NCBI GenBank assembly: GCA_015485155.1
Contig: WFUF01000025.1
Span: forward strand, 248,001 to 312,000
Length of the DNA: 64,000 nucleotides
Reading direction: 5' to 3'
From: Robiginitomaculum sp.
GTDB taxonomy: Bacteria; Pseudomonadota; Alphaproteobacteria; Caulobacterales; Maricaulaceae
Shown here: one piece after another, positions 5,456 to 53,044 of the stretch
How positions within the stretch are numbered: the first letter of the stretch is position 1
Layout of the letters: each line of letters starts with the position of its first letter
Notes under the pieces: model-generated
Database searches by the model: none
What the model was told of the DNA's origin: nothing
Seen by the model: only the letters and a program-made list of their open reading frames with translations
Made by a program: the position numbers and the translations under genes

Positions 5456-5546
5456 TAACAAATAACCCCTCTAGCAAGCTAGAGGGGCATTTTGTGGTCT
5501 AAACCTTGTTAACGGAAAGACCGCGTTTCCTAATCAGCTACAATTA
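5456..5546 (-). ncRNA. Predicted tracrRNA for the type II-C Cas9
   Basis: Plus strand 5521-5544 (CCGCGTTTCCTAATCAGCTACAAT) is 21/24 identical to the complement of the array repeat; weaker similarity continues to 5508 (GTTAACGG versus GTTGCGG). On the minus strand this is followed by GGTTTAGACC (possible nexus) and a perfect 10-bp-stem hairpin CCCCTCTAGCTTGCTAGAGGGG, then TTATTTGTT. Confidence 0.82.
5466..5487 (-). terminator. Rho-independent-like terminator of tracrRNA
   Basis: Perfect inverted repeat CCCCTCTAGC-AA-GCTAGAGGGG; minus-strand tail TTATTTGTT. Confidence 0.75.
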
Positions 5547-5625: not shown

Positions 5626-8600
5626 ATGAAATGGCGACTTGGATTGGATGTGGGAACCAACTCATTGGGTTGGGCAGCGTTAGAAATTACCGATGGGGTT
5701 GATGATCGGGGCAAACCATTGGGCCAGCCCACAAGGTTAATAGACAGCGGAGTACGGGTATTCTCTGATGGGCGCAACGCCAAGAGCAAGCAGTCCAATG
5801 CCGCAGAGCGGCGCGAGCCTAGAGCCGCAAGGCGTAATCGGGACAGGTATAAAAACCGCCGCAAGCGCCTGTTCAATGAATTGGTGCAGTTTGGCTTAAT
5901 GCCAAAGGACAAAGCCGCGCAAAAGTTACTGGAAAGCTTTGACCCATGGATTTTACGGGCCCAAGGTTTGCACCAGAAACTGGACATTCATCAATTGGGT
6001 CGCGCCCTGTTTCATTTGCACCAAAGGCGTGGTTTCAAATCTAATCGCAAAACTGATCGGGGCGACAAGGAAAGCGGCAAAGTTGCAGATGCGACCAAGC
6101 GCACCTTGGCGCAAATGGACGAACAAGGCGTAACAACACTTGGTGAGCTGTTTGGAAAGCCAAGGTTAAAAGCCCAGGAATTTAACAAAACAGCGCCAAG
6201 AGGAAAGCGTAAGCCCCAACCGCTTGCTCGGGTTCGCAAGTCGGGCGAGGGTGCGAAGTGGGCCTATGACTATTATCCAACTCGCGCTCTTATTGAGCAT
6301 GAATTTGATGAATTATGGAAAGCACAATCTGCTTATCATTCTGATATTCTTACCGATAAAGCCAAATCTGCCATAAAAGAGACCCTGCTCTGGCAATGGC
6401 CATTAAAGCCACAGCCCGTGGGCAAATGTACTTTACTACCAGAAGAGCCACGTGCGCCCAAAGCGTTGCCCTCCTCACAATTGGTGCGGATTTATCAGGA
6501 GGTCAACAATCTGCGGGTTGGCTATACAGGCCGGGTCGATCGCCCGCTTAATATGGACGAGCGCAACACCCTTGTTGAGAAATTAAAAACAACGGGAAAG
6601 CCAACATTTGCCAGCCTGCGCAAACTTCTCAAAATCCCGACAGGTGAGAGGTTTAATCTTGAGAGCGAAAAGCGCAAAGACCTCAAGGGCGATGAAACTG
6701 CCATGATTATGAAGAATGACAAATGTTGGGGCAAAGCGTGGCTTGACCTGTCACTTACTGAGCAAGATGCAATTATTACTAAACTGCTTGATGAAGAAAG
6801 CGAGGAAAAGGTTTTAAGCTGGCTGCAGTCTGATTATGGCTTCTCTGCTGCTCGTGCCCAAGCCATCGCCAACGCAAGCCTGCCTGCTGGTTATGGCATG
6901 TTATCTTCTAAGGCGATTGGCAAACTTTTGCTCGTATTTATGGATGATGTTATTGTTTACAGCGATGCAGTTGGAAAAGCATTTGGAACCAGTCATTCCA
7001 ACTTTGAAACCGGCGAAGTTTTTGATGAGGCCTTGCCGTATTACGGTGAAATTCTGACCCGTCATGTAGCATTTGGAACCGGGGACCCAAAAGATTTGCC
7101 GGAAAAGCGATATGGGAAACTTGCTAATCCAACTGTGCATGTTTCCATGAATCAAATTCGTGCCGTTATCAATGATTTATTGAAACGTTTCGGCCCGCCT
7201 GAACAGATTGTACTTGAGCTTGCCCGGGATTTGCCCATGTCTGCTGATGGCAAGCGCGAACTGGAAAGCAGTCAAAAGAAAAATCAGGAGGCCAATGAAA
7301 AACGCGCCAAAGAATTAGAAGAAGATTTCAAGGTTCCCAATAACTATGAAAATCGTATGCGCTTGCGTCTTTGGGAGGAATTAGACGTAATAGGGCGCGC
7401 CTGCGTCTTTACCGGCAGGATTATTGGCCGTGAAATGCTGTTTTCCCCTGAGGTGGAAATAGAGCATTTACTGCCATTTAGCTGGAGTTTTGATGATGGT
7501 ATTGGCAACAAGGTTTTGTGTATGCGAGAAGCCAATCGTGCCAAGGGCAACAGAACTCCTTTTGAGGCTTTTGGTCATAGCCCTGTTATTAACGGCATTC
7601 ATTATGACTGGGATGAAATATCTGCGCGCTCCGCTGCCTTGCCCAGAAGCAAGCAATGGCGCTTTAGCGGGAACGCCCGTGAAATATTTGAAAAAGACCA
7701 TAAAGGCTTTATGCCAAGACAGCTTACCGATACCCGCTATATTGCCCGCTTGGCCCGGCAATATGTAGGCGCAATTTTTGGTGGTCAGGGAAGCAAGGGC
7801 ATAGAAAATAGAGTCTGGAGTGTAAATGGTCGCTTAACCTCTGATTTGCGCTGGCAATTGGGCTTGGATAGCGTTCTTGCCGGACATAATTCAGCAATTG
7901 GGGGGGATGTTAAGAAGAACCGCAATGACCACCGCCATCATGCCATTGATGCCATTGTCATCGCTCTTACAGATCGTAGCATGGTAAAGAAGGCCTCAAA
8001 TCAAGCCAGAAAAAACCATGAAAAATGGAATAATCGCCTGCTTTGCGATCTACAGGAACCCTGGAAAGGTTTCCGCGAAGATGTGGCAAAGTCAATCGGC
8101 GAGATCAAAGTCTCCCACAAACCAGATCACGGTATTCAGGGGGCTTTGCACAATGATACGGCGTACGGTCTTGTCAAAGGCGCAGAAGGAGAACCAGATA
8201 AGAAAGGGGTAAGAACGGTTGTACGACGTGTGCCGTTGGACAGCTTTGATAATCCGGCCTCCCTTGGGAAAATTAGGGATCATGTAATTCAATCCCACCT
8301 GCTACAGGAGACCGAGGGCCTGACCGGCAAAGATTTTAAGGCTGCGCTCTTGCAGGCCGGTGAAAATATGACCCCGCCAGTAAGAAAAATCCGGATTGAG
8401 GAAAAACTGAAGGTTATTACGATAAACAACAAATCCGGTAAGCCCTACAAGGGCTATAAGGGTGATAGCAATTATTGTTACGACATTTGGATGGGCGATA
8501 AAGGTAAATGGGAAGGCGAGGTCATATCAACTTTTGATGCCAACCAGAAAGGCTTTGACTGGCGTTCTAAAACCGCCCGCAATGGCAAGCCATTGATTAT

Positions 8601-8847
8601 GCGTATTCGTAAGAATGATTATGTTCAACTGGAACAAGATGATCAAATCAAGCTACTTCAAATTTATAAGTTTTCAAAGGGCATGATAAACATGGCAGAG
8701 CACTATGAAGCCAATGTTGATGCCCGCGTAAGAGAAAAAGACCTAAAATCAATTCAAATGGCTCCATCCTCCTTGCAAAAAGCCAAGGCGCGCCGTGTTA
8801 CCGTTACCCCGTCCGGTAAATTATATTATCCGGGGCCAGCATCATGA
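5626..8847 (+). CDS. cas9: CRISPR-associated endonuclease Cas9, type II-C (about 1073 aa)
   Basis: RuvC-I RLGLDVGTNSLGWA, Arg-rich bridge helix AERREPRAARRNRDRYKNRRKR, RuvC-II PPEQIVLELARDL, HNH VEIEHLLPFSWSFDDGIGNKVLC, RuvC-III HHAIDAIVIALTD. The start at 5626 (MKWRLGLDVGT) is preferred over the upstream in-frame ATG at 5572. Confidence 0.97.
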   Translation: MKWRLGLDVGTNSLGWAALEITDGVDDRGKPLGQPTRLIDSGVRVFSDGRNAKSKQSNAAERREPRAARRNRDRYKNRRKRLFNELVQFGLMPKDKAAQKLLESFDPWILRAQGLHQKLDIHQLGRALFHLHQRRGFKSNRKTDRGDKESGKVADATKRTLAQMDEQGVTTLGELFGKPRLKAQEFNKTAPRGKRKPQPLARVRKSGEGAKWAYDYYPTRALIEHEFDELWKAQSAYHSDILTDKAKSAIKETLLWQWPLKPQPVGKCTLLPEEPRAPKALPSSQLVRIYQEVNNLRVGYTGRVDRPLNMDERNTLVEKLKTTGKPTFASLRKLLKIPTGERFNLESEKRKDLKGDETAMIMKNDKCWGKAWLDLSLTEQDAIITKLLDEESEEKVLSWLQSDYGFSAARAQAIANASLPAGYGMLSSKAIGKLLLVFMDDVIVYSDAVGKAFGTSHSNFETGEVFDEALPYYGEILTRHVAFGTGDPKDLPEKRYGKLANPTVHVSMNQIRAVINDLLKRFGPPEQIVLELARDLPMSADGKRELESSQKKNQEANEKRAKELEEDFKVPNNYENRMRLRLWEELDVIGRACVFTGRIIGREMLFSPEVEIEHLLPFSWSFDDGIGNKVLCMREANRAKGNRTPFEAFGHSPVINGIHYDWDEISARSAALPRSKQWRFSGNAREIFEKDHKGFMPRQLTDTRYIARLARQYVGAIFGGQGSKGIENRVWSVNGRLTSDLRWQLGLDSVLAGHNSAIGGDVKKNRNDHRHHAIDAIVIALTDRSMVKKASNQARKNHEKWNNRLLCDLQEPWKGFREDVAKSIGEIKVSHKPDHGIQGALHNDTAYGLVKGAEGEPDKKGVRTVVRRVPLDSFDNPASLGKIRDHVIQSHLLQETEGLTGKDFKAALLQAGENMTPPVRKIRIEEKLKVITINNKSGKPYKGYKGDSNYCYDIWMGDKGKWEGEVISTFDANQKGFDWRSKTARNGKPLIMRIRKNDYVQLEQDDQIKLLQIYKFSKGMINMAEHYEANVDARVREKDLKSIQMAPSSLQKAKARRVTVTPSGKLYYPGPAS

Positions 8848-9755
8848 TTGGCGGGCGCATTATTGATATTACCAGTGATGGCGTGCATCTCTCGGTTACA
8901 CGGGGTTTTATGAAAATCAGCAAGGATCGTGAACAAATCGGGCAAGTGGCATTGGATGACATTGCTGCACTACTGATTCATGCCCACGGTGCAACCTATA
9001 GTGCCAATCTGGTTATCCGTTTGGCCGAGCGCGGCACGCCAATGGTAATGTGTGCCGCCAACCACAATCCGATTGCTTTTGTCTTGCCCTTACATGGTCA
9101 TTTTGAACAGGGTAAGCGCATGCGCGCCCAGGCTGATGCCAGCAAGCGAAAACGAGGCCGGATATGGCGTGATCTGATCAAGGCCAAAATCATCGCCCAG
9201 GGTGATGTGCTGGATGCTTGCGGCAAAAACGGTGATACGGTTCGCCATTTGCATCGCACGGTCAAAGCCGGTGATCCTGATAATCTGGAGGCACAGGCCG
9301 CCCGGCGTTATTGGCCATTATTGTTCGGTAAAACTTTTCGCCGTGACCAGGCCATGGGCGGTATCAACGCTCATCTCAACTATGGTTATACCGTATTGCG
9401 CGCAGCCGCCGCCCGTTCCATTTTGGGCGCAGGCTTGCACCCATCCTTGTCCGTACGTCACATTTCACGCGGCGAAGCCTTACGTCTTGCTGATGATGTG
9501 ATGGAGCCATTTCGCCCGTTTGTGGATCTGGTGGTGTATCATCTGTCTACTGATCCTGAACAAGACTTAAGCCCAGATAGCAAGCGCAAATTGGCAGCGG
9601 TCACCGATTTTGATTTAACCGGGCCAAAAGGGGCGTCACCTGTTCGCGTTTGTCTGGAGCGGCTTTGCGTGTCATTGGCGCAAATGTTTACCGGTGAAGC
9701 AACAAAACTGGAATTACCGGGCGCTCCGCTGCCGCTGGAGGCTGCAAATCTATGA
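8844..9755 (+). CDS. cas1: CRISPR-associated endonuclease/integrase Cas1 (type II)
   Basis: 303 aa immediately after cas9 with ATGA overlap; GGINAHLNYGYTVLRAAAARSILGAGLHPSLSVRH motif of Cas1. Confidence 0.96.
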   Translation: MIGGRIIDITSDGVHLSVTRGFMKISKDREQIGQVALDDIAALLIHAHGATYSANLVIRLAERGTPMVMCAANHNPIAFVLPLHGHFEQGKRMRAQADASKRKRGRIWRDLIKAKIIAQGDVLDACGKNGDTVRHLHRTVKAGDPDNLEAQAARRYWPLLFGKTFRRDQAMGGINAHLNYGYTVLRAAAARSILGAGLHPSLSVRHISRGEALRLADDVMEPFRPFVDLVVYHLSTDPEQDLSPDSKRKLAAVTDFDLTGPKGASPVRVCLERLCVSLAQMFTGEATKLELPGAPLPLEAANL

Positions 9756-10084
9756 AACAATTATCAGGATATAAAATTATGTGGATGATGGTATTGTTCG
9801 ACCTTCCGGTCGGCACAAAGAAGGAACGTAAAGAAGCAAGTGATTTTAGATTATATCTCAAAGACCTTGGTTTTGAAATGGCGCAGTTTTCGGTCTATAT
9901 CCGTCATACCTCTGGAAAAGAGGCGGTGGAAAATTATATTCGTAAAATCAGCGCATCTTTGCCATCGGGCGGAAAAGTTGATATATTGCAATTTACTGAC
10001 AAGCAGTATGAAAATATCCATTGCTTTAGAGGAACAAAAAGTGATTCGTCACCGCAGAACCCGGAACAATTACTGCTTTTTTAG
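9752..10084 (+). CDS. cas2: CRISPR-associated protein Cas2
   Basis: 110 aa, MVLFDLPVGTKKERKEASDFRLYLKDLGFEMAQFSVYIRH; overlaps cas1 by ATGA. Confidence 0.95.
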   Translation: MKQLSGYKIMWMMVLFDLPVGTKKERKEASDFRLYLKDLGFEMAQFSVYIRHTSGKEAVENYIRKISASLPSGGKVDILQFTDKQYENIHCFRGTKSDSSPQNPEQLLLF

Positions 10085-10120
10085 CCGAAATTCGCTGAAC
10101 CGTGCTCGCCAGAACAATGG

Positions 10121-10141
10121 AAAAACTCTTGAAAACAAGAG
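10121..10141 (-). terminator. Minus-strand terminator at the cas2-proximal end of the CRISPR array
   Basis: CTCTTG-AAAA-CAAGAG (10126-10141), with AAAAA at 10121-10125 giving a U-run on the minus strand only; flanked by outer inverted repeat CAATGG/CCATTG (10115-10120/10147-10152). Confidence 0.65.
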
Positions 10142-10156
10142 CTTAACCATTGATCT

Positions 10157-10851
10157 GTTATAGCTGATTAAGAAACGCGGGCCAACCGCAACTCAGTCGG
10201 CCCACCGTCCAGGGCTTCGGTTGTTATAGCTGATTAAGAAACGCGGGCCAACCGCAACAAAACGTCTTCGGCATCCTCAAGAGAAAACGTTATAGCTGAT
10301 TAAGAAACGCGGGCCAACCGCAACATATTTGCCATTAAGGGCAACGTTATGAACGTTATAGCTGATTAAGAAACGCGGGCCAACCGCAACTATTGGCCCT
10401 TACCCAACTCTACACCAGACGTTATAGCTGATTAAGAAACGCGGGCCAACCGCAACTTGTGGCCGGCGTTGGCCACGCATACGATTGTTATAGCTGATTA
10501 AGAAACGCGGGCCAACCGCAACTACTGTATTACCTGATATTGTTGTTGTACGTTATAGCTGATTAAGAAACGCGGGCCAACCGCAACAGCTGAGTTTTTC
10601 TGAGCTGCTTACGGCGAGTTATAGCTGATTAAGAAACGCGGGCCAACCGCAACGCTCGGTTTCTTCAGCCAGAAAAAGCAGGTGTTATAGCTGATTAAGA
10701 AACGCGGGCCAACCGCAACGCTCTGCAGCCGTCTCCATGGTCGCAATCTGTTATAGCTGATTAAGAAACGCGGGCCAACCGCAACCGGATGGCCGTATTC
10801 AGTTTCTCGCAGATTGTTATAGCTGATTAAGAAACGCGGGCCAACCGCAAG
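10157..10851 (-). CRISPR. CRISPR array: 11 repeats of 36 bp, 10 spacers (nine of 30 bp, one of 29 bp)
   Basis: Repeat (+) GTTATAGCTGATTAAGAAACGCGGGCCAACCGCAAC at 10157, 10223, 10289, 10355, 10421, 10487, 10552, 10618, 10684, 10750 and 10816 (the last ends CAAG instead of CAAC). Minus orientation inferred from anti-repeat/tracrRNA layout, terminator beside cas2 and distal duplicated leader. Confidence 0.97.
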
Positions 10852-10929
10852 CTGTGTGTGCGTATTATTCTCAATCACTTCAAATTAGGTTTGTGCATTT
10901 AGCCATCTGGCATATATATGAGCGATTGA
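10816..10929. repeat. 114-bp direct repeat (CRISPR repeat plus leader), copy 1
   Basis: Matches 13241-13354 with a single mismatch (10918 A versus 13343 G). Confidence 0.95.
10851..10929 (-). promoter_or_regulatory. Putative CRISPR leader, copy 1
   Basis: AT-rich noncoding sequence abutting the variant repeat; same sequence also abuts the solo repeat at 13241. Confidence 0.65.
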
Positions 10930-10950
10930 CTGACACTATCAACTTTATTT

Positions 10951-11487
10951 TTATTTGCTGTTAACGGCCTCTTCTGTATCTGTGCCCTTGCTTTTGCCAA
11001 CTTTAGTCAGGTCAAAAGATGTTTCCTCTCCTGTAACAAGCGCCTCCATATAATTAACGAAGTCAGGCCCAAGTCCCTTTTTGCCGAACGTGTTCCACAC
11101 CCATAGACCACCAGGACTGTTCATTACCGCGATCATATCTTTGCGGCAATTATGCCATTGGGTATCAGGCAGCAATTTGTCTTGATGCTGTTCAAACATG
11201 GTGGAATAAATTTGCATGAAGTGGCCTAGCATAACGAGAAATTGCATACGCTCGGCGTCATCAAGTGCATCTGGGTCATCCCAACCCCGTTGAAAAACCG
11301 ATGCTGTAGATGTGTTGCCAGCGATAAGCGCATTGAATTGCCCGGAGGCTTCCACCCACTGAAAACGGGCACTGGCCCGGCCCTGCATGGTATTCTGCCG
11401 CACCTGCATGGCTAGATAAAGAACTGAAGGTATCAAAGCGGCCACGGCCAAAATCTGCGAGATGAGGTAAATATCATTAAGGGTCAT
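10951..11487 (-). CDS. Hypothetical protein with N-terminal TM helix (cargo gene 3)
   Basis: 178 aa, MTLNDIYLISQILAVAALIPSVLYLAMQVRQ membrane anchor followed by a soluble, probably helical region. Confidence 0.75.
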   Translation of the reverse strand: MTLNDIYLISQILAVAALIPSVLYLAMQVRQNTMQGRASARFQWVEASGQFNALIAGNTSTASVFQRGWDDPDALDDAERMQFLVMLGHFMQIYSTMFEQHQDKLLPDTQWHNCRKDMIAVMNSPGGLWVWNTFGKKGLGPDFVNYMEALVTGEETSFDLTKVGKSKGTDTEEAVNSK

Positions 11488-11596
11488 TTTGTTGGCTCCG
11501 CTTGATGTGAAAATTTATGGAACATCCATAAAAACCCAGTGCGACTACAAACCGGCTCTGCGCTTTAACGTGCTTGGTTACACGGCGTAGGCGCAT
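11478..11596 (-). pseudogene. 5' fragment of a third paralog of the membrane-protein pair
   Basis: ATG at 11596 reads MRLRRVTKHVKAQSRFVVALGF... then diverges and stops, versus MRLRSLTKHVRDQNWFAVALDF of the neighbouring intact gene. Confidence 0.65.
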
Positions 11597-12336
11597 TATT
11601 TTGTTTCCAATTCTCTATCCAGCAAAAGCAATATGTTCTGATATTGCTGCATCCGCCTGTTTTCATTGCGGGCGAGAACCGCGTTCGCAAACTGGATTGC
11701 GGAAATAGCGCTAATATAGTGTGTGTCCTTACATAAAACCGGAAAGTCATAGGATATGGATCTGTCAGCAATTGGGTATTCGTCCGCCGTCACAATACCG
11801 TCGGGCAGATCAAAGACCATACGCCCATCAACATATGCCATCTGCGGCGAAAACCTTGCGGTAATAAATTCAAGAATTTTGGCCTGATCCTCATAATTTT
11901 CAAGTAAATCATTGATCGCCGTGCGTAGCTCGAGATTGCGGATCAGGCCAGTTCTGCCGGTTGATTGAAGTTCATCCAAAGTGCCGCGCACCAGCGAGAG
12001 CGGTTGGGTTTGCCCGATTGTACGAAGACCCTCATGAAATACTGGACGTGTTGCCTCGTTCAATTCACAGGCTTGCAATGCTTTAACCATCACGCCTTGA
12101 TTATCGATCTGCTTTTGTACCGTATCAATACTCTCTATCGCCGCTATTTTTGACCGTGTCAGATCATCCCGTAACCGCTCCAAATACTGCCGCTCAAGCC
12201 TTTGTTCAACCCGCCCCTCATTCCAACTGGTGATTTGGAATGCGATCAGGATACCAACTACTACAATCACAAAATCTAGCGCCACCGCAAACCAGTTTTG
12301 GTCACGCACGTGTTTTGTTAGGGAGCGTAGGCGCAT
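11596..12336 (-). CDS. DUF6090-like small membrane-anchored protein (cargo gene 2)
   Basis: MRLRSLTKHVRDQNWFAVALDFVIVVVGILIAFQITSWNEGR N-terminus, paralogous to the adjacent gene; DUF6090 assignment from recall, not searched. Confidence 0.75.
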   Translation of the reverse strand: MRLRSLTKHVRDQNWFAVALDFVIVVVGILIAFQITSWNEGRVEQRLERQYLERLRDDLTRSKIAAIESIDTVQKQIDNQGVMVKALQACELNEATRPVFHEGLRTIGQTQPLSLVRGTLDELQSTGRTGLIRNLELRTAINDLLENYEDQAKILEFITARFSPQMAYVDGRMVFDLPDGIVTADEYPIADRSISYDFPVLCKDTHYISAISAIQFANAVLARNENRRMQQYQNILLLLDRELETK

Positions 12337-13166
12337 TATTCTTCACTCCGAATATTGATCTGCGAGCTGTTCTCCAGCTCTGGCCGAGTCTCCAGCACTT
12401 TCCGAGTGGCGCGAAAAGGCCAAATCATCTGAATAATATTCTTAACATCGGAATTTTGTGTTTTCAGGGTCGCAACGCGGTGACGTAGCGCCGGGGCAGC
12501 AGACGGATGTTGGCGCAAGATTTGCGCAGCTTCTTCTATTTGCTCTGGCGGAAGGTCAAGGGCGCATTCGTATCCGATCGAATTTTCTTCATTCATGACT
12601 TGGTCAATCGTCAATGCTCGATCACCGCAAGCACTGCCAACAACCATCTGGATGTTGATCGGCATAATACTACGGTATAAATTTCGATACTCCGACGATT
12701 GGCCAAAACGTTCGTAGGCTGATATTGTGCTCGTGCTGTAAAAGAGGGACGCTGTTGCCCCCATCTTTGTATTTGCAACCAGTTCTAACCCGCCCGTTGC
12801 AACGAGCTCCTCGTAAACTCCCGCTGTTTGGGAAAATCTATTAAATTGAGTAGCTCGATACGCAGAGATTAAAAATGCTTCGTCGGACATTGGTTCACGG
12901 CCAGTGATATCGTTCAGCACGCGAAGCGCATCTGCGTAAACCTGTTGGTGGTAATTGTATAGACTGATAACAACCCAAACATCGCTTCCGAAGTTCGTTT
13001 CCAGACGCTCTATGAGCGCATTTGTTCGTTTTTTCAGCGCCCGCTCCTCATTCCAATTGGTAATCTGAAACGCGATCAGAATACCCGCAACCACAATAAT
13101 AAAATCCAACGCCACCGCGAACCAGTTTTGGTCTTTTATGTGTTTTGTTAATGAGCGTAGGAGCAT
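12336..13166 (-). CDS. DUF6090-like small membrane-anchored protein (cargo gene 1)
   Basis: MLLRSLTKHIKDQNWFAVALDFIIVVAGILIAFQITNWNEER; start at 13166 preferred over 13205 by alignment to the paralog; TAATG overlap with the next gene. Confidence 0.75.
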   Translation of the reverse strand: MLLRSLTKHIKDQNWFAVALDFIIVVAGILIAFQITNWNEERALKKRTNALIERLETNFGSDVWVVISLYNYHQQVYADALRVLNDITGREPMSDEAFLISAYRATQFNRFSQTAGVYEELVATGGLELVANTKMGATASLFYSTSTISAYERFGQSSEYRNLYRSIMPINIQMVVGSACGDRALTIDQVMNEENSIGYECALDLPPEQIEEAAQILRQHPSAAPALRHRVATLKTQNSDVKNIIQMIWPFRATRKVLETRPELENSSQINIRSEE

Positions 13167-13240
13167 TACTTTCTTCTTTTCCAAGTTTTTATCCAGTAAA
13201 GACATATGTTCTTATGTTGCTGCCACTATTATCGCAAATC
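13166..13240 (-). pseudogene. Frameshifted 3' remnant of a further paralog abutting the solo CRISPR repeat
   Basis: Minus strand CAGCAACATAAGAACATATGTCTTTACTGGATAAAAACTTGGAAAAG...TAATGCTCCTACG aligns with CAGCAATATCAGAACATATTGCTTTTGCTGGATAGAGAATTGGAAAC...TAATGCGCCTACG, the 3' end of cargo gene 2. Confidence 0.5.
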
Positions 13241-13275
13241 GTTATAGCTGATTAAGAAACGCGGGCCAACCGCAA
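13241..13275 (-). CRISPR. Solo CRISPR repeat with no spacer on either side
   Basis: 35/35 identity to GTTATAGCTGATTAAGAAACGCGGGCCAACCGCAA, followed by G as in the leader-proximal array repeat. Confidence 0.95.
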
Positions 13276-13354
13276 GCTGTGTGTGCGTATTATTCTCAAT
13301 CACTTCAAATTAGGTTTGTGCATTTAGCCATCTGGCATATATGTGAGCGATTGA
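13276..13354 (-). promoter_or_regulatory. Putative CRISPR leader, copy 2
   Basis: 78/79 identical to 10851-10929. Confidence 0.65.
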
Positions 13355-13379: not shown

Positions 13380-14129
13380 ATGTCTCACTCAAACATATAT
13401 ATCGCGCTGGCCGGGCCAAAGGGGCGACTGGGTAGCCAGATATGCAAAGCCATGGAGACGGATCATGGCACATATCTTGAGACCAGATTAAGCCGCAAGT
13501 CTCCTTTTGGCGGTCTGCTAAATGCCGACAGCAAATGTGACATGGTGCTGGATGTTTCATCCTGTGAAGGGGTTATCCAGCGTCTTCCGGTAGTGCTGGA
13601 CTTGAACTTGCCGCTGGTCATTGGTGTTACCGGTTTTACCGCCGACCAGAAAGATAAAATCCAGAAGGCATCAGAGCATATCCCTGTATTGCTTTGCGGT
13701 AATTTCTCTATTGGTGTCAATCAGTTACTTTTGCAAGTTAAGCAAACAGCCAAAGCTTTTGGTAAAGAGGCACAGATAAAGATCAGTGAAACCCATCATA
13801 TAAACAAGAAAGATTATCCATCAGGTACTGCCCTGATGATTGCACAGGCGGTAATGGATGGTATTGGTTGCGAGAAGCGTATAAAATCAACGCTTTGGCC
13901 GGAAAAGCTAGAAAATAACAGTCCTGATATACTGCCGATTATCTGCTATCGTAAAAGCGATGTCATTGGCGAGCATTCCGTAGAGTTTACTAAGGATAAT
14001 GAACAAGTAGTGCTAGGTCATACTGCATTGGATCGGGAAATATTCGCCCGTGGAGCTTTACGTGCCGCCAGATGGATTGTCGGCCAAAAGCCAGGGCTAT
14101 ATGCTATGAGCGATGTTTTAGGCTCATGA
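13380..14129 (+). CDS. dapB: 4-hydroxy-tetrahydrodipicolinate reductase
   Basis: N-terminal Rossmann IALAGPKGRLG, VIGVTGF, ETHHINKKDYPSGTAL (DapB signature). Confidence 0.88.
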   Translation: MSHSNIYIALAGPKGRLGSQICKAMETDHGTYLETRLSRKSPFGGLLNADSKCDMVLDVSSCEGVIQRLPVVLDLNLPLVIGVTGFTADQKDKIQKASEHIPVLLCGNFSIGVNQLLLQVKQTAKAFGKEAQIKISETHHINKKDYPSGTALMIAQAVMDGIGCEKRIKSTLWPEKLENNSPDILPIICYRKSDVIGEHSVEFTKDNEQVVLGHTALDREIFARGALRAARWIVGQKPGLYAMSDVLGS

Positions 14130-51783: not shown

Positions 51784-52794
51784 ATGGCTTCCAAGACTAA
51801 AACAAAAGTCGGAATTACCCGTAAACTACCCCTTCCCACAAAACAGCGCATGCAAACCCTGTTTGATGTGCAAATGAATGAAAGTGATGGCGCCCTAACC
51901 CGCCATGATTTACTAAACATGGCTGCAAGCTGTACAGTCTTGTGTCCTACGGTTACCGACACCATAGATGAAGAAGTTATCAAGGCTGGTGGCAATACTC
52001 TGAAATTATTGGCTAATTTTGGTGCTGGCACTGATCATATTGACTTAAAATCAGCATCAGAAAATAACATCATGGTCACCAACACCCCCGATGTATTAAC
52101 CGAGGACACCGCGGATCTGACCATGGCCTTGCTGTTGGCGGTGCCCAGAAGAATCATTGAAGGTGCAGAATTATTACGACAAGGTGGCTATGAGGAAGGG
52201 TGGTCACCCACCTGGATGATGGGTCGTTCGCTTGGTGGAAAAAAACTTGGTATTGTGGGCATGGGCCGAATTGGACAGGCAGTGGCGGCACGAGCCCGGA
52301 CCTTTGGCATGGAAATTCATTATCACAACCGACATCCGGTTTCCTCTGCCATTTCTGACACTCTGCAGGCTTTGTACTGGCCTGATCTGAAAGCCATGAT
52401 GGCGGAAATGGATTTCATATCCCTAAACTGCCCGTTAAGTGATCAAACCCACCATTTAATTGATGAAGAACTATTGTCACGAATGCCGGATCATGCAGTT
52501 CTGATCAATACGGCACGGGGAAAACTGATTGACGAACAGGCTCTGGTAAAAGCCTTGCAAACCCGGAAACTGGCCGGGGCCGGGCTTGATGTTTATGAGT
52601 TTGAGCCAAAGGTAACACCGGAGTTGTTAAAAATGAAGCAGGTGGTGGCCTTGCCGCATATGGGCTCATCAACACTGGAGGCTCGAACCGCAATGGGCGA
52701 GCGCATGATTATCAATATCAAAGCCTTTGAAGACGGGCACAAGCCACCGGATCGCGTAATCCACGGGCTTATGCAAGCAGGAGAGCATTTTTAG
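51784..52794 (+). CDS. D-2-hydroxyacid dehydrogenase
   Basis: NFGAGTDHIDL, LGIVGMGRIGQAVAARARTFGMEIHYHNR, LINTARGKLIDEQAL, GAGLDVYEFEP. Confidence 0.92.
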   Translation: MASKTKTKVGITRKLPLPTKQRMQTLFDVQMNESDGALTRHDLLNMAASCTVLCPTVTDTIDEEVIKAGGNTLKLLANFGAGTDHIDLKSASENNIMVTNTPDVLTEDTADLTMALLLAVPRRIIEGAELLRQGGYEEGWSPTWMMGRSLGGKKLGIVGMGRIGQAVAARARTFGMEIHYHNRHPVSSAISDTLQALYWPDLKAMMAEMDFISLNCPLSDQTHHLIDEELLSRMPDHAVLINTARGKLIDEQALVKALQTRKLAGAGLDVYEFEPKVTPELLKMKQVVALPHMGSSTLEARTAMGERMIINIKAFEDGHKPPDRVIHGLMQAGEHF

Positions 52795-52928
52795 CAAAAG
52801 TGGGAACCGGTTTTGCGGTTCAAAAATGCGACAGATAAGAGATTTGCATTTTTAGCAAAAGTGGGAACCGGTTTTGCGGTTCAAAAATGCGACAGATAAG
52901 AGATTTGCATTTTTAGCAAAAGTGGGAA
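52786..52928. repeat. 61-bp tandem repeat, 2 full copies plus 21 bp of a third
   Basis: CATTTTTAGCAAAAGTGGGAACCGGTTTTGCGGTTCAAAAATGCGACAGATAAGAGATTTG at 52786 and 52847; partial copy at 52908; first copy covers the stop codon of the upstream gene. Confidence 0.95.
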
Positions 52929-52938
52929 GGTTTTTTTG

Positions 52939-53044
52939 TGTCCTATCGCCTATCGGCTACTTGAGGACTCTTTTAATGTCCTATCGCCTATCGGCTACTT
53001 GAGGACTCTTTTAATGTCCTATCGCCTAGCGGCTACTTGAGGAC
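52939..53044. repeat. 38-bp tandem repeat, 2 full copies plus 30 bp of a third
   Basis: TGTCCTATCGCCTATCGGCTACTTGAGGACTCTTTTAA at 52939 and 52977; third copy at 53015 carries CTAGCGGC. Confidence 0.95.

What the first reader, a model, noticed from the sequence alone, without database searches (positions are those of the whole stretch)
10816..13354. Duplicated CRISPR leader plus first repeat brackets a 2.3-kb gene cargo
Seen directly: 10816-10929 and 13241-13354 are the same 114 bp (35-nt CRISPR repeat, then 79 bp of putative leader) with one mismatch. Between them (10930-13240) lie only minus-strand genes. If the array is read on the minus strand, the order is leader, solo repeat, three-gene cargo, leader, repeat, spacers. 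Cas1-Cas2 integration duplicates only the repeat, so a 114-bp duplication that includes the leader suggests homologous recombination of a leader-bearing molecule, or segmental duplication/transposition, rather than normal adaptation. I do not recall a described case of gene cargo between duplicated leader-repeat units in a II-C locus, but no search was run.
Basis: partly seen in the sequence, partly recalled or inferred. Interest (0 to 1): 0.82.

Follow-up and report, generated by a model that had tools for sequence, protein, structure and literature searches.

The report
Gene fragment captured beside a CRISPR array
Next to a bacterial CRISPR-Cas9 memory array, a 114-bp piece of DNA was duplicated in tandem and a truncated block of membrane-protein genes was caught between the two copies; it looks like a recombination accident that CRISPR adaptation did not cause, though it may have placed the genes behind a promoter built into a CRISPR repeat.

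Summary
10816-10929 and 13241-13354 are the same 114 bp (one mismatch), the only two copies in the genome, and bracket 2,311 bp of minus-strand genes.

The interpretation needs changes. The tracrRNA anatomy indicates that crRNAs are read on the minus strand, so the 79-bp flank is the array's upstream flank in transcription. It is probably not the adaptation leader: degenerate terminal repeats lie at this cas2-distal end in 8 of 18 related arrays (0 of 18 at the cas2 end), and a II-C system whose acquisition was tested adds spacers beside cas2.

The cargo is a truncated piece of a tandem DUF6090-like membrane-protein cluster, common in related genomes, joined to the solo repeat partway through another gene's 3' end. 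It has no transposase or defined ends, and was not found in the phage, viral or plasmid collections.

Best reading: a tandem duplication of repeat plus flank, with foreign or translocated DNA captured at the junction by template switching or transformation-type illegitimate recombination (no Ku detected; microhomology at one junction). Possible consequence: the solo repeat carries a promoter-like TTGGCC-N17-TATAAC reading into the cargo. Relatives are too distant to show the empty site, and an assembly or population mixture cannot be excluded.

The parts
5460..5545 (-). predicted tracrRNA: anti-repeat, conserved TTTCCGTTAACAAGG lower stem/nexus, terminator hairpin
   Evidence: 22/26 match to the repeat, -47 kcal/mol predicted duplex, same downstream motif on the same strand in L092, L131, L135, L136. 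Not an Rfam hit.
5626..8847 (+). cas9
   Evidence: TIGR01865, 644 bits
8844..9755 (+). cas1 (type II)
   Evidence: TIGR03639, 225 bits, cut-off 120
9752..10084 (+). cas2
10085..10156 (.). cas2-array intergenic region, hairpin-bearing: likely adaptation-leader side
   Evidence: conserved among relatives (mean local score 9.6 against 7.0 shuffled)
10157..10851 (-). CRISPR array, 11 repeats of 36 nt and 10 spacers of 29-30 nt, crRNA strand minus
10816..10929 (.). copy A of the 114-bp unit: terminal repeat (last base G) plus 78-bp flank
10951..11487 (-). cargo gene: 178-aa protein, no named family; homologues co-occur with DUF6090-like clusters in relatives
11500..11600 (-). degenerate start of a further DUF6090-like gene
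   Evidence: (D4)
11596..12336 (-). cargo gene: DUF6090 protein, chimeric (C-terminal part 78% to L091:2686-3438, N-terminal part closest to other paralogues)
12336..13205 (-). cargo gene: DUF6090-like protein, 84-85% aa to its G011 counterpart in L091; the start may be internal, near 13169
13178..13223 (-). remnant of the 3' end of another DUF6090-like gene, cut off before the solo repeat
   Evidence: alignment to the 3' end of 11596-12336
13241..13354 (.). copy B of the 114-bp unit: solo repeat plus 78-bp flank upstream of dapB
13241..13269 (-). promoter-like TTGGCC-N17-TATAAC inside the solo repeat, pointing into the cargo
   Evidence: pattern kept in 22 related repeats; function not tested
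13386..14129 (+). dapB-like gene; flanks the duplication on the right

Best explanation
The structure is a tandem duplication of a 114-bp segment (the cas2-distal terminal repeat and the adjoining flank in front of dapB) with 2.3 kb of unrelated DNA captured at the duplication junction. The captured DNA is a truncated fragment of a DUF6090-like tandem gene cluster, from another strain or translocated within the lineage. Shown: the duplication, the cluster identity, the truncation, the absence of the cluster from the site it occupies in G011, and the absence of a detected Ku. Inferred: the event was one illegitimate, replication- or transformation-linked recombination (template switch or interchromatid integration of a donor fragment), returning at the imperfect microhomology TCGCA(G/A)AT just before the repeat. 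That would explain why the boundary falls exactly on the repeat edge without Cas1-Cas2. The flank is the transcription-upstream side and the old end of the array, not the acquisition end. Keeping a full flank copy left both the array and dapB with intact upstream DNA, which may be why this arrangement survived.
For: Two near-identical copies flank the cargo, with unrelated DNA outside. The left flanks share 9 of 13 bases; 0.18% of random pairs do as well. The cargo's right end is a truncated gene end. In G011 the orthologues sit in an 8-kb, eight-gene cluster between coxE-like and mscS genes; the same interval in this genome has no DUF6090 gene, and no further match to the cargo query exists in this genome. 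No Ku in this genome. No match to the cargo query in viral, plasmid or phage collections. [quoted passage not shown] anatipestifer II-C (PMC6008519). Precedent for donor fragments causing tandem duplications: PMC3784515.
Against: No close relative shows the empty site: dapB is at most 51% identical elsewhere and its upstream neighbours differ, so the pre-insertion state is inferred. The microhomology is imperfect and its statistical support modest. The spacer next to copy A could have been replaced later, hiding the true breakpoint. PMC12638026 reports II-C acquisition at the 3' end, which agrees with the cas2 side here, but it also warns that II-C groups may differ.
Confidence: 0.6

Rival explanations
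1. Single-crossover (Campbell) integration of a circular molecule carrying the cargo and its own copy of repeat plus flank; the 114-bp copies are the recombined homology.
For: It gives exactly this structure. A review (PMC8616872) mentions the idea of viral integration at arrays through solitary repeats.
Against: Homology covers the chromosomal flank too, not the repeat alone. No plasmid, phage, viral contig or relative holds the unit. The cargo has no replication or phage genes.
Confidence: 0.13
2. Two arrays once flanked the DUF6090 cluster (a larger duplication), and the second array was lost by deletion down to its last repeat.
For: The boundary falls exactly on a repeat edge, as array contraction would leave it.
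Against: DUF6090 homology runs to about 17 bp from the solo repeat, so no full spacer remains. The genome has no other array of this repeat.
Confidence: 0.1
3. Assembly or population artefact: the cargo is elsewhere or on a circle, and the 114-bp repeat let the assembler join it here.
For: Draft assembly of 27 contigs. The path array-unit-cargo-unit-dapB is also what a mixture of a linear and a circular form would give.
Against: The two copies differ by one base. The contig is 316 kb and both junctions lie inside it. No second location of the cargo genes.
Confidence: 0.1
4. Cas1-Cas2 related insertion: an aberrant integration at the repeat edge took in a long fragment.
For: The left edge coincides with the repeat edge.
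Against: The duplication is 114 bp, not one repeat. This is the old end of the array, away from the likely acquisition site. A 2.3-kb insert is far from 30 nt.
Confidence: 0.04

Closest known systems
Type II-C CRISPR-Cas (tracrRNA, cas9-cas1-cas2, array), e.g. Riemerella anatipestifer
   Same: gene order, tracrRNA upstream of cas9, 36-nt repeats and 30-nt spacers like those of the order-level relatives, promoter-like hexamers inside the repeat
   Different: a second terminal repeat and flank 2.4 kb away with unrelated genes between; not seen in the 17 related arrays examined
Transformation-driven tandem duplication and homology-facilitated illegitimate recombination (PMC3784515, PMC3240628)
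   Same: duplicated chromosomal DNA around captured donor DNA, no transposase
   Different: the duplication is only 114 bp; natural competence or a donor was not shown for this organism
Solitary repeat units / Racr (PMC10651486)
   Same: a lone CRISPR repeat outside the array
   Different: here on the chromosome beside its own array, with the flank duplicated, next to bacterial genes; no phage context
DUF6090-like tandem gene clusters of related genera
   Same: same protein families, same-strand overlapping genes, shared N-terminal segment
   Different: only two intact members, truncated at one end, and placed beside a CRISPR array

Membership tests
Type II-C CRISPR-Cas | cas9, cas1, cas2 and no csn2 or cas4 in the operon | tested here: met
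   cas9-cas1-cas2 abut, nothing else in the operon
Type II-C CRISPR-Cas | tracrRNA with anti-repeat | tested here: met
   by anatomy and conservation; no Rfam match; expression not tested
Adaptation leader | flank lies at the end where new spacers enter | tested here: not met
   indirect: 8/18 degenerate repeats at this end, 0/18 at the cas2 end; R. anatipestifer data; the variant last base in copy A is not shared by the other ten repeats
Transposon with target-site duplication | transposase or defined element ends | tested here: not met
   no transposase in the cargo; right end cut inside a gene; 114 bp is far longer than usual target duplications (general knowledge)
Cas1-Cas2 spacer integration | duplication of one repeat around a ~30-bp insert | tested here: not met
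   114 bp duplicated, 2,311-bp insert
Tandem duplication with captured insert | direct repeats of chromosomal DNA around foreign DNA, ancestral empty site | tested here: inconclusive
   direct repeats met; empty site not available in relatives
DUF6090 (PF19578) | score above the curated cut-off | tested here: inconclusive
   11596-12336: 25.4 bits (cut-off 23.5), met; 12336-13205: 15.1 bits, not met, but it shares the N-terminal segment and has an 85% orthologue inside a cluster
Solitary repeat unit / Racr | carried by a phage or mobile element | tested here: not met
   no viral match; cargo homologues found only in bacterial genomes in the searches run

The most novel reading that the evidence does not exclude
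The solo CRISPR repeat acts as the promoter of the captured, otherwise promoterless operon fragment. The duplication gave cargo and array one repeat promoter each, so a CRISPR repeat has been turned into a gene-expression element.
Probability: 0.3. Interest if true: 0.6.

Novelty: new variant of a known kind. Interest (0 to 1): 0.36.

Why it matters
It suggests that the old, transcription-upstream end of a II-C array can take up gene cargo by ordinary illegitimate recombination. If the repeat promoter does drive the cargo, II-C repeats are ready-made portable promoters for captured genes. It also warns against calling any array flank a leader in II-C loci, where transcription start and acquisition can lie at opposite ends.

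Tried and rejected
I first took the plus strand as the crRNA strand, because the anti-repeat also matches that way. I dropped this after finding the conserved TTTCCGTTAACAAGG nexus and a terminator on the minus strand in the window and four related loci. Resemblance of the two cargo ends (CTGACACTATCAAC / CTGCCACTATTATC) was seen but not tested, and is treated as chance. Spacer matches to any held locus other than copies of this array were only chance-level. Searches for the unit or cargo in plasmids, phages and viral contigs were empty. PADLOC, NCBIfam and PHROGs gave no reliable name for the cargo proteins. A structure model of 12336-13205 (mean pLDDT 84) was all-helical, with no PDB match at E below 0.001. 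A promoter for dapB in the flank was not found by the consensus scan. Literature searches for duplicated leaders or gene cargo at array ends found no matching case in the library held.

Full report
Observation. The 114-bp copies at 10816-10929 and 13241-13354 differ at one base and are unique in the genome. Each holds a full 36-nt repeat, whose last base is G instead of the C of the other ten, and a 78-bp flank. The copies bracket 10930-13240.

Which end is this? The predicted tracrRNA lies on the minus strand at about 5545-5460. The anti-repeat is followed by TTTCCGTTAACAAGG, a nexus and a terminator hairpin, and the same or a one-base variant of this motif follows the anti-repeat in L092, L131, L135 and L136. 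The predicted repeat:anti-repeat duplex is stronger on this strand (-47 against -35 kcal/mol). crRNAs are therefore most likely read on the minus strand, from the 78-bp flank towards cas2. On that strand each repeat carries TTGGCC-N17-TATAAC, and related repeats keep this pattern (mean 6.7 of 12 consensus matches against 2.8 in shuffles; the repeats are related, so this overstates independence). II-C repeats with internal promoters are known from Neisseria and Campylobacter (PMC8616872). The flank is thus upstream in transcription.

Acquisition is another matter. Among 18 arrays of the same order with both ends visible (the window included), the distal terminal repeat is degenerate in 8 and the cas2-side repeat in none. 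The cas2-side flank is conserved and the distal one hardly (mean local score 9.6 against 7.0 shuffled; 6.8 against 6.4). R. [quoted passage not shown] All point to the cas2 side as the acquisition end, so the duplicated unit is the old end.

What the cargo is. The genes belong to tandem clusters widespread in the genus, family and order. In the clusters examined, each DUF6090-type gene starts with a similar segment of about 45 residues (55-76% mean identity within a genome) followed by unrelated C-terminal parts (8-22%). In G011 the two orthologues (84% and 75% aa) sit 6 kb apart in one cluster between a coxE-like gene and mscS. The same interval here has no such genes. Core-type genes are 74-81% identical between the two genomes, so the cargo need not be a recent import from far away; transfer and translocation both remain open. 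11596-12336 joins the C-terminal part of one G011 paralogue to the N-terminal type of others, so the fragment has been reshuffled through its N-terminal repeats. At its right end it begins inside the 3' end of another gene (13178-13223), so it is a cut fragment and not a cassette with defined ends.

How it arose. Direct repeats around an insert without transposase fit a tandem duplication with capture. No Ku gene was found, which speaks against classical end joining. The 13 bases left of the two copies share 9 positions, including TCGCA-AT; 0.18% of random pairs score as well. A nascent or donor strand annealing there would resume copying at the first base of the repeat, which accounts for the exact edge. 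Transformation is known to make tandem duplications through donor fragments bridging sister chromatids (PMC3784515). This step is inference. The region is also a rearranged one: relatives have dnaJ one or two genes upstream of dapB, while here dnaJ lies 87 kb away on the same contig.

What it may do. The solo repeat's promoter-like hexamers point into 12336-13205, roughly 60-70 nt upstream of its likely start. Genes in these clusters overlap like an operon, so a cut fragment would probably lack a promoter. Capture behind a repeat could have supplied one. This is untested.

Limits. The nearest genomes are too distant to show the empty site, reads were not available, and the function of the cargo proteins is unknown.

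Noticed in passing
window 11596-13205; L091, L230-L237: DUF6090-like clusters: up to 20 same-strand, often overlapping genes in 20 kb, each with a similar N-terminal membrane-type segment homogenised within a genome and unrelated C-terminal regions; looks like modular shuffling through the shared 5' ends. No paper in the library names DUF6090.
   Followed up: partly
L145 position 6626: A solitary near-copy of the CRISPR repeat about 4.6 kb before a II-C array in a gammaproteobacterial genome.
   Followed up: no
L093 and L094 (G003 contigs C52 and C12): A related array appears broken by an IS-like insertion; repeats sit near two contig ends.
   Followed up: no
window 52785-52906: Exact tandem repeat of 61 bp (two copies, a third diverged copy at 53022).
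   Followed up: no
L226 8132-8692: A 186-aa gene, Panacea/DUF4065-like by eye, occupies the interval where G011 carries its DUF6090 cluster.
   Followed up: no
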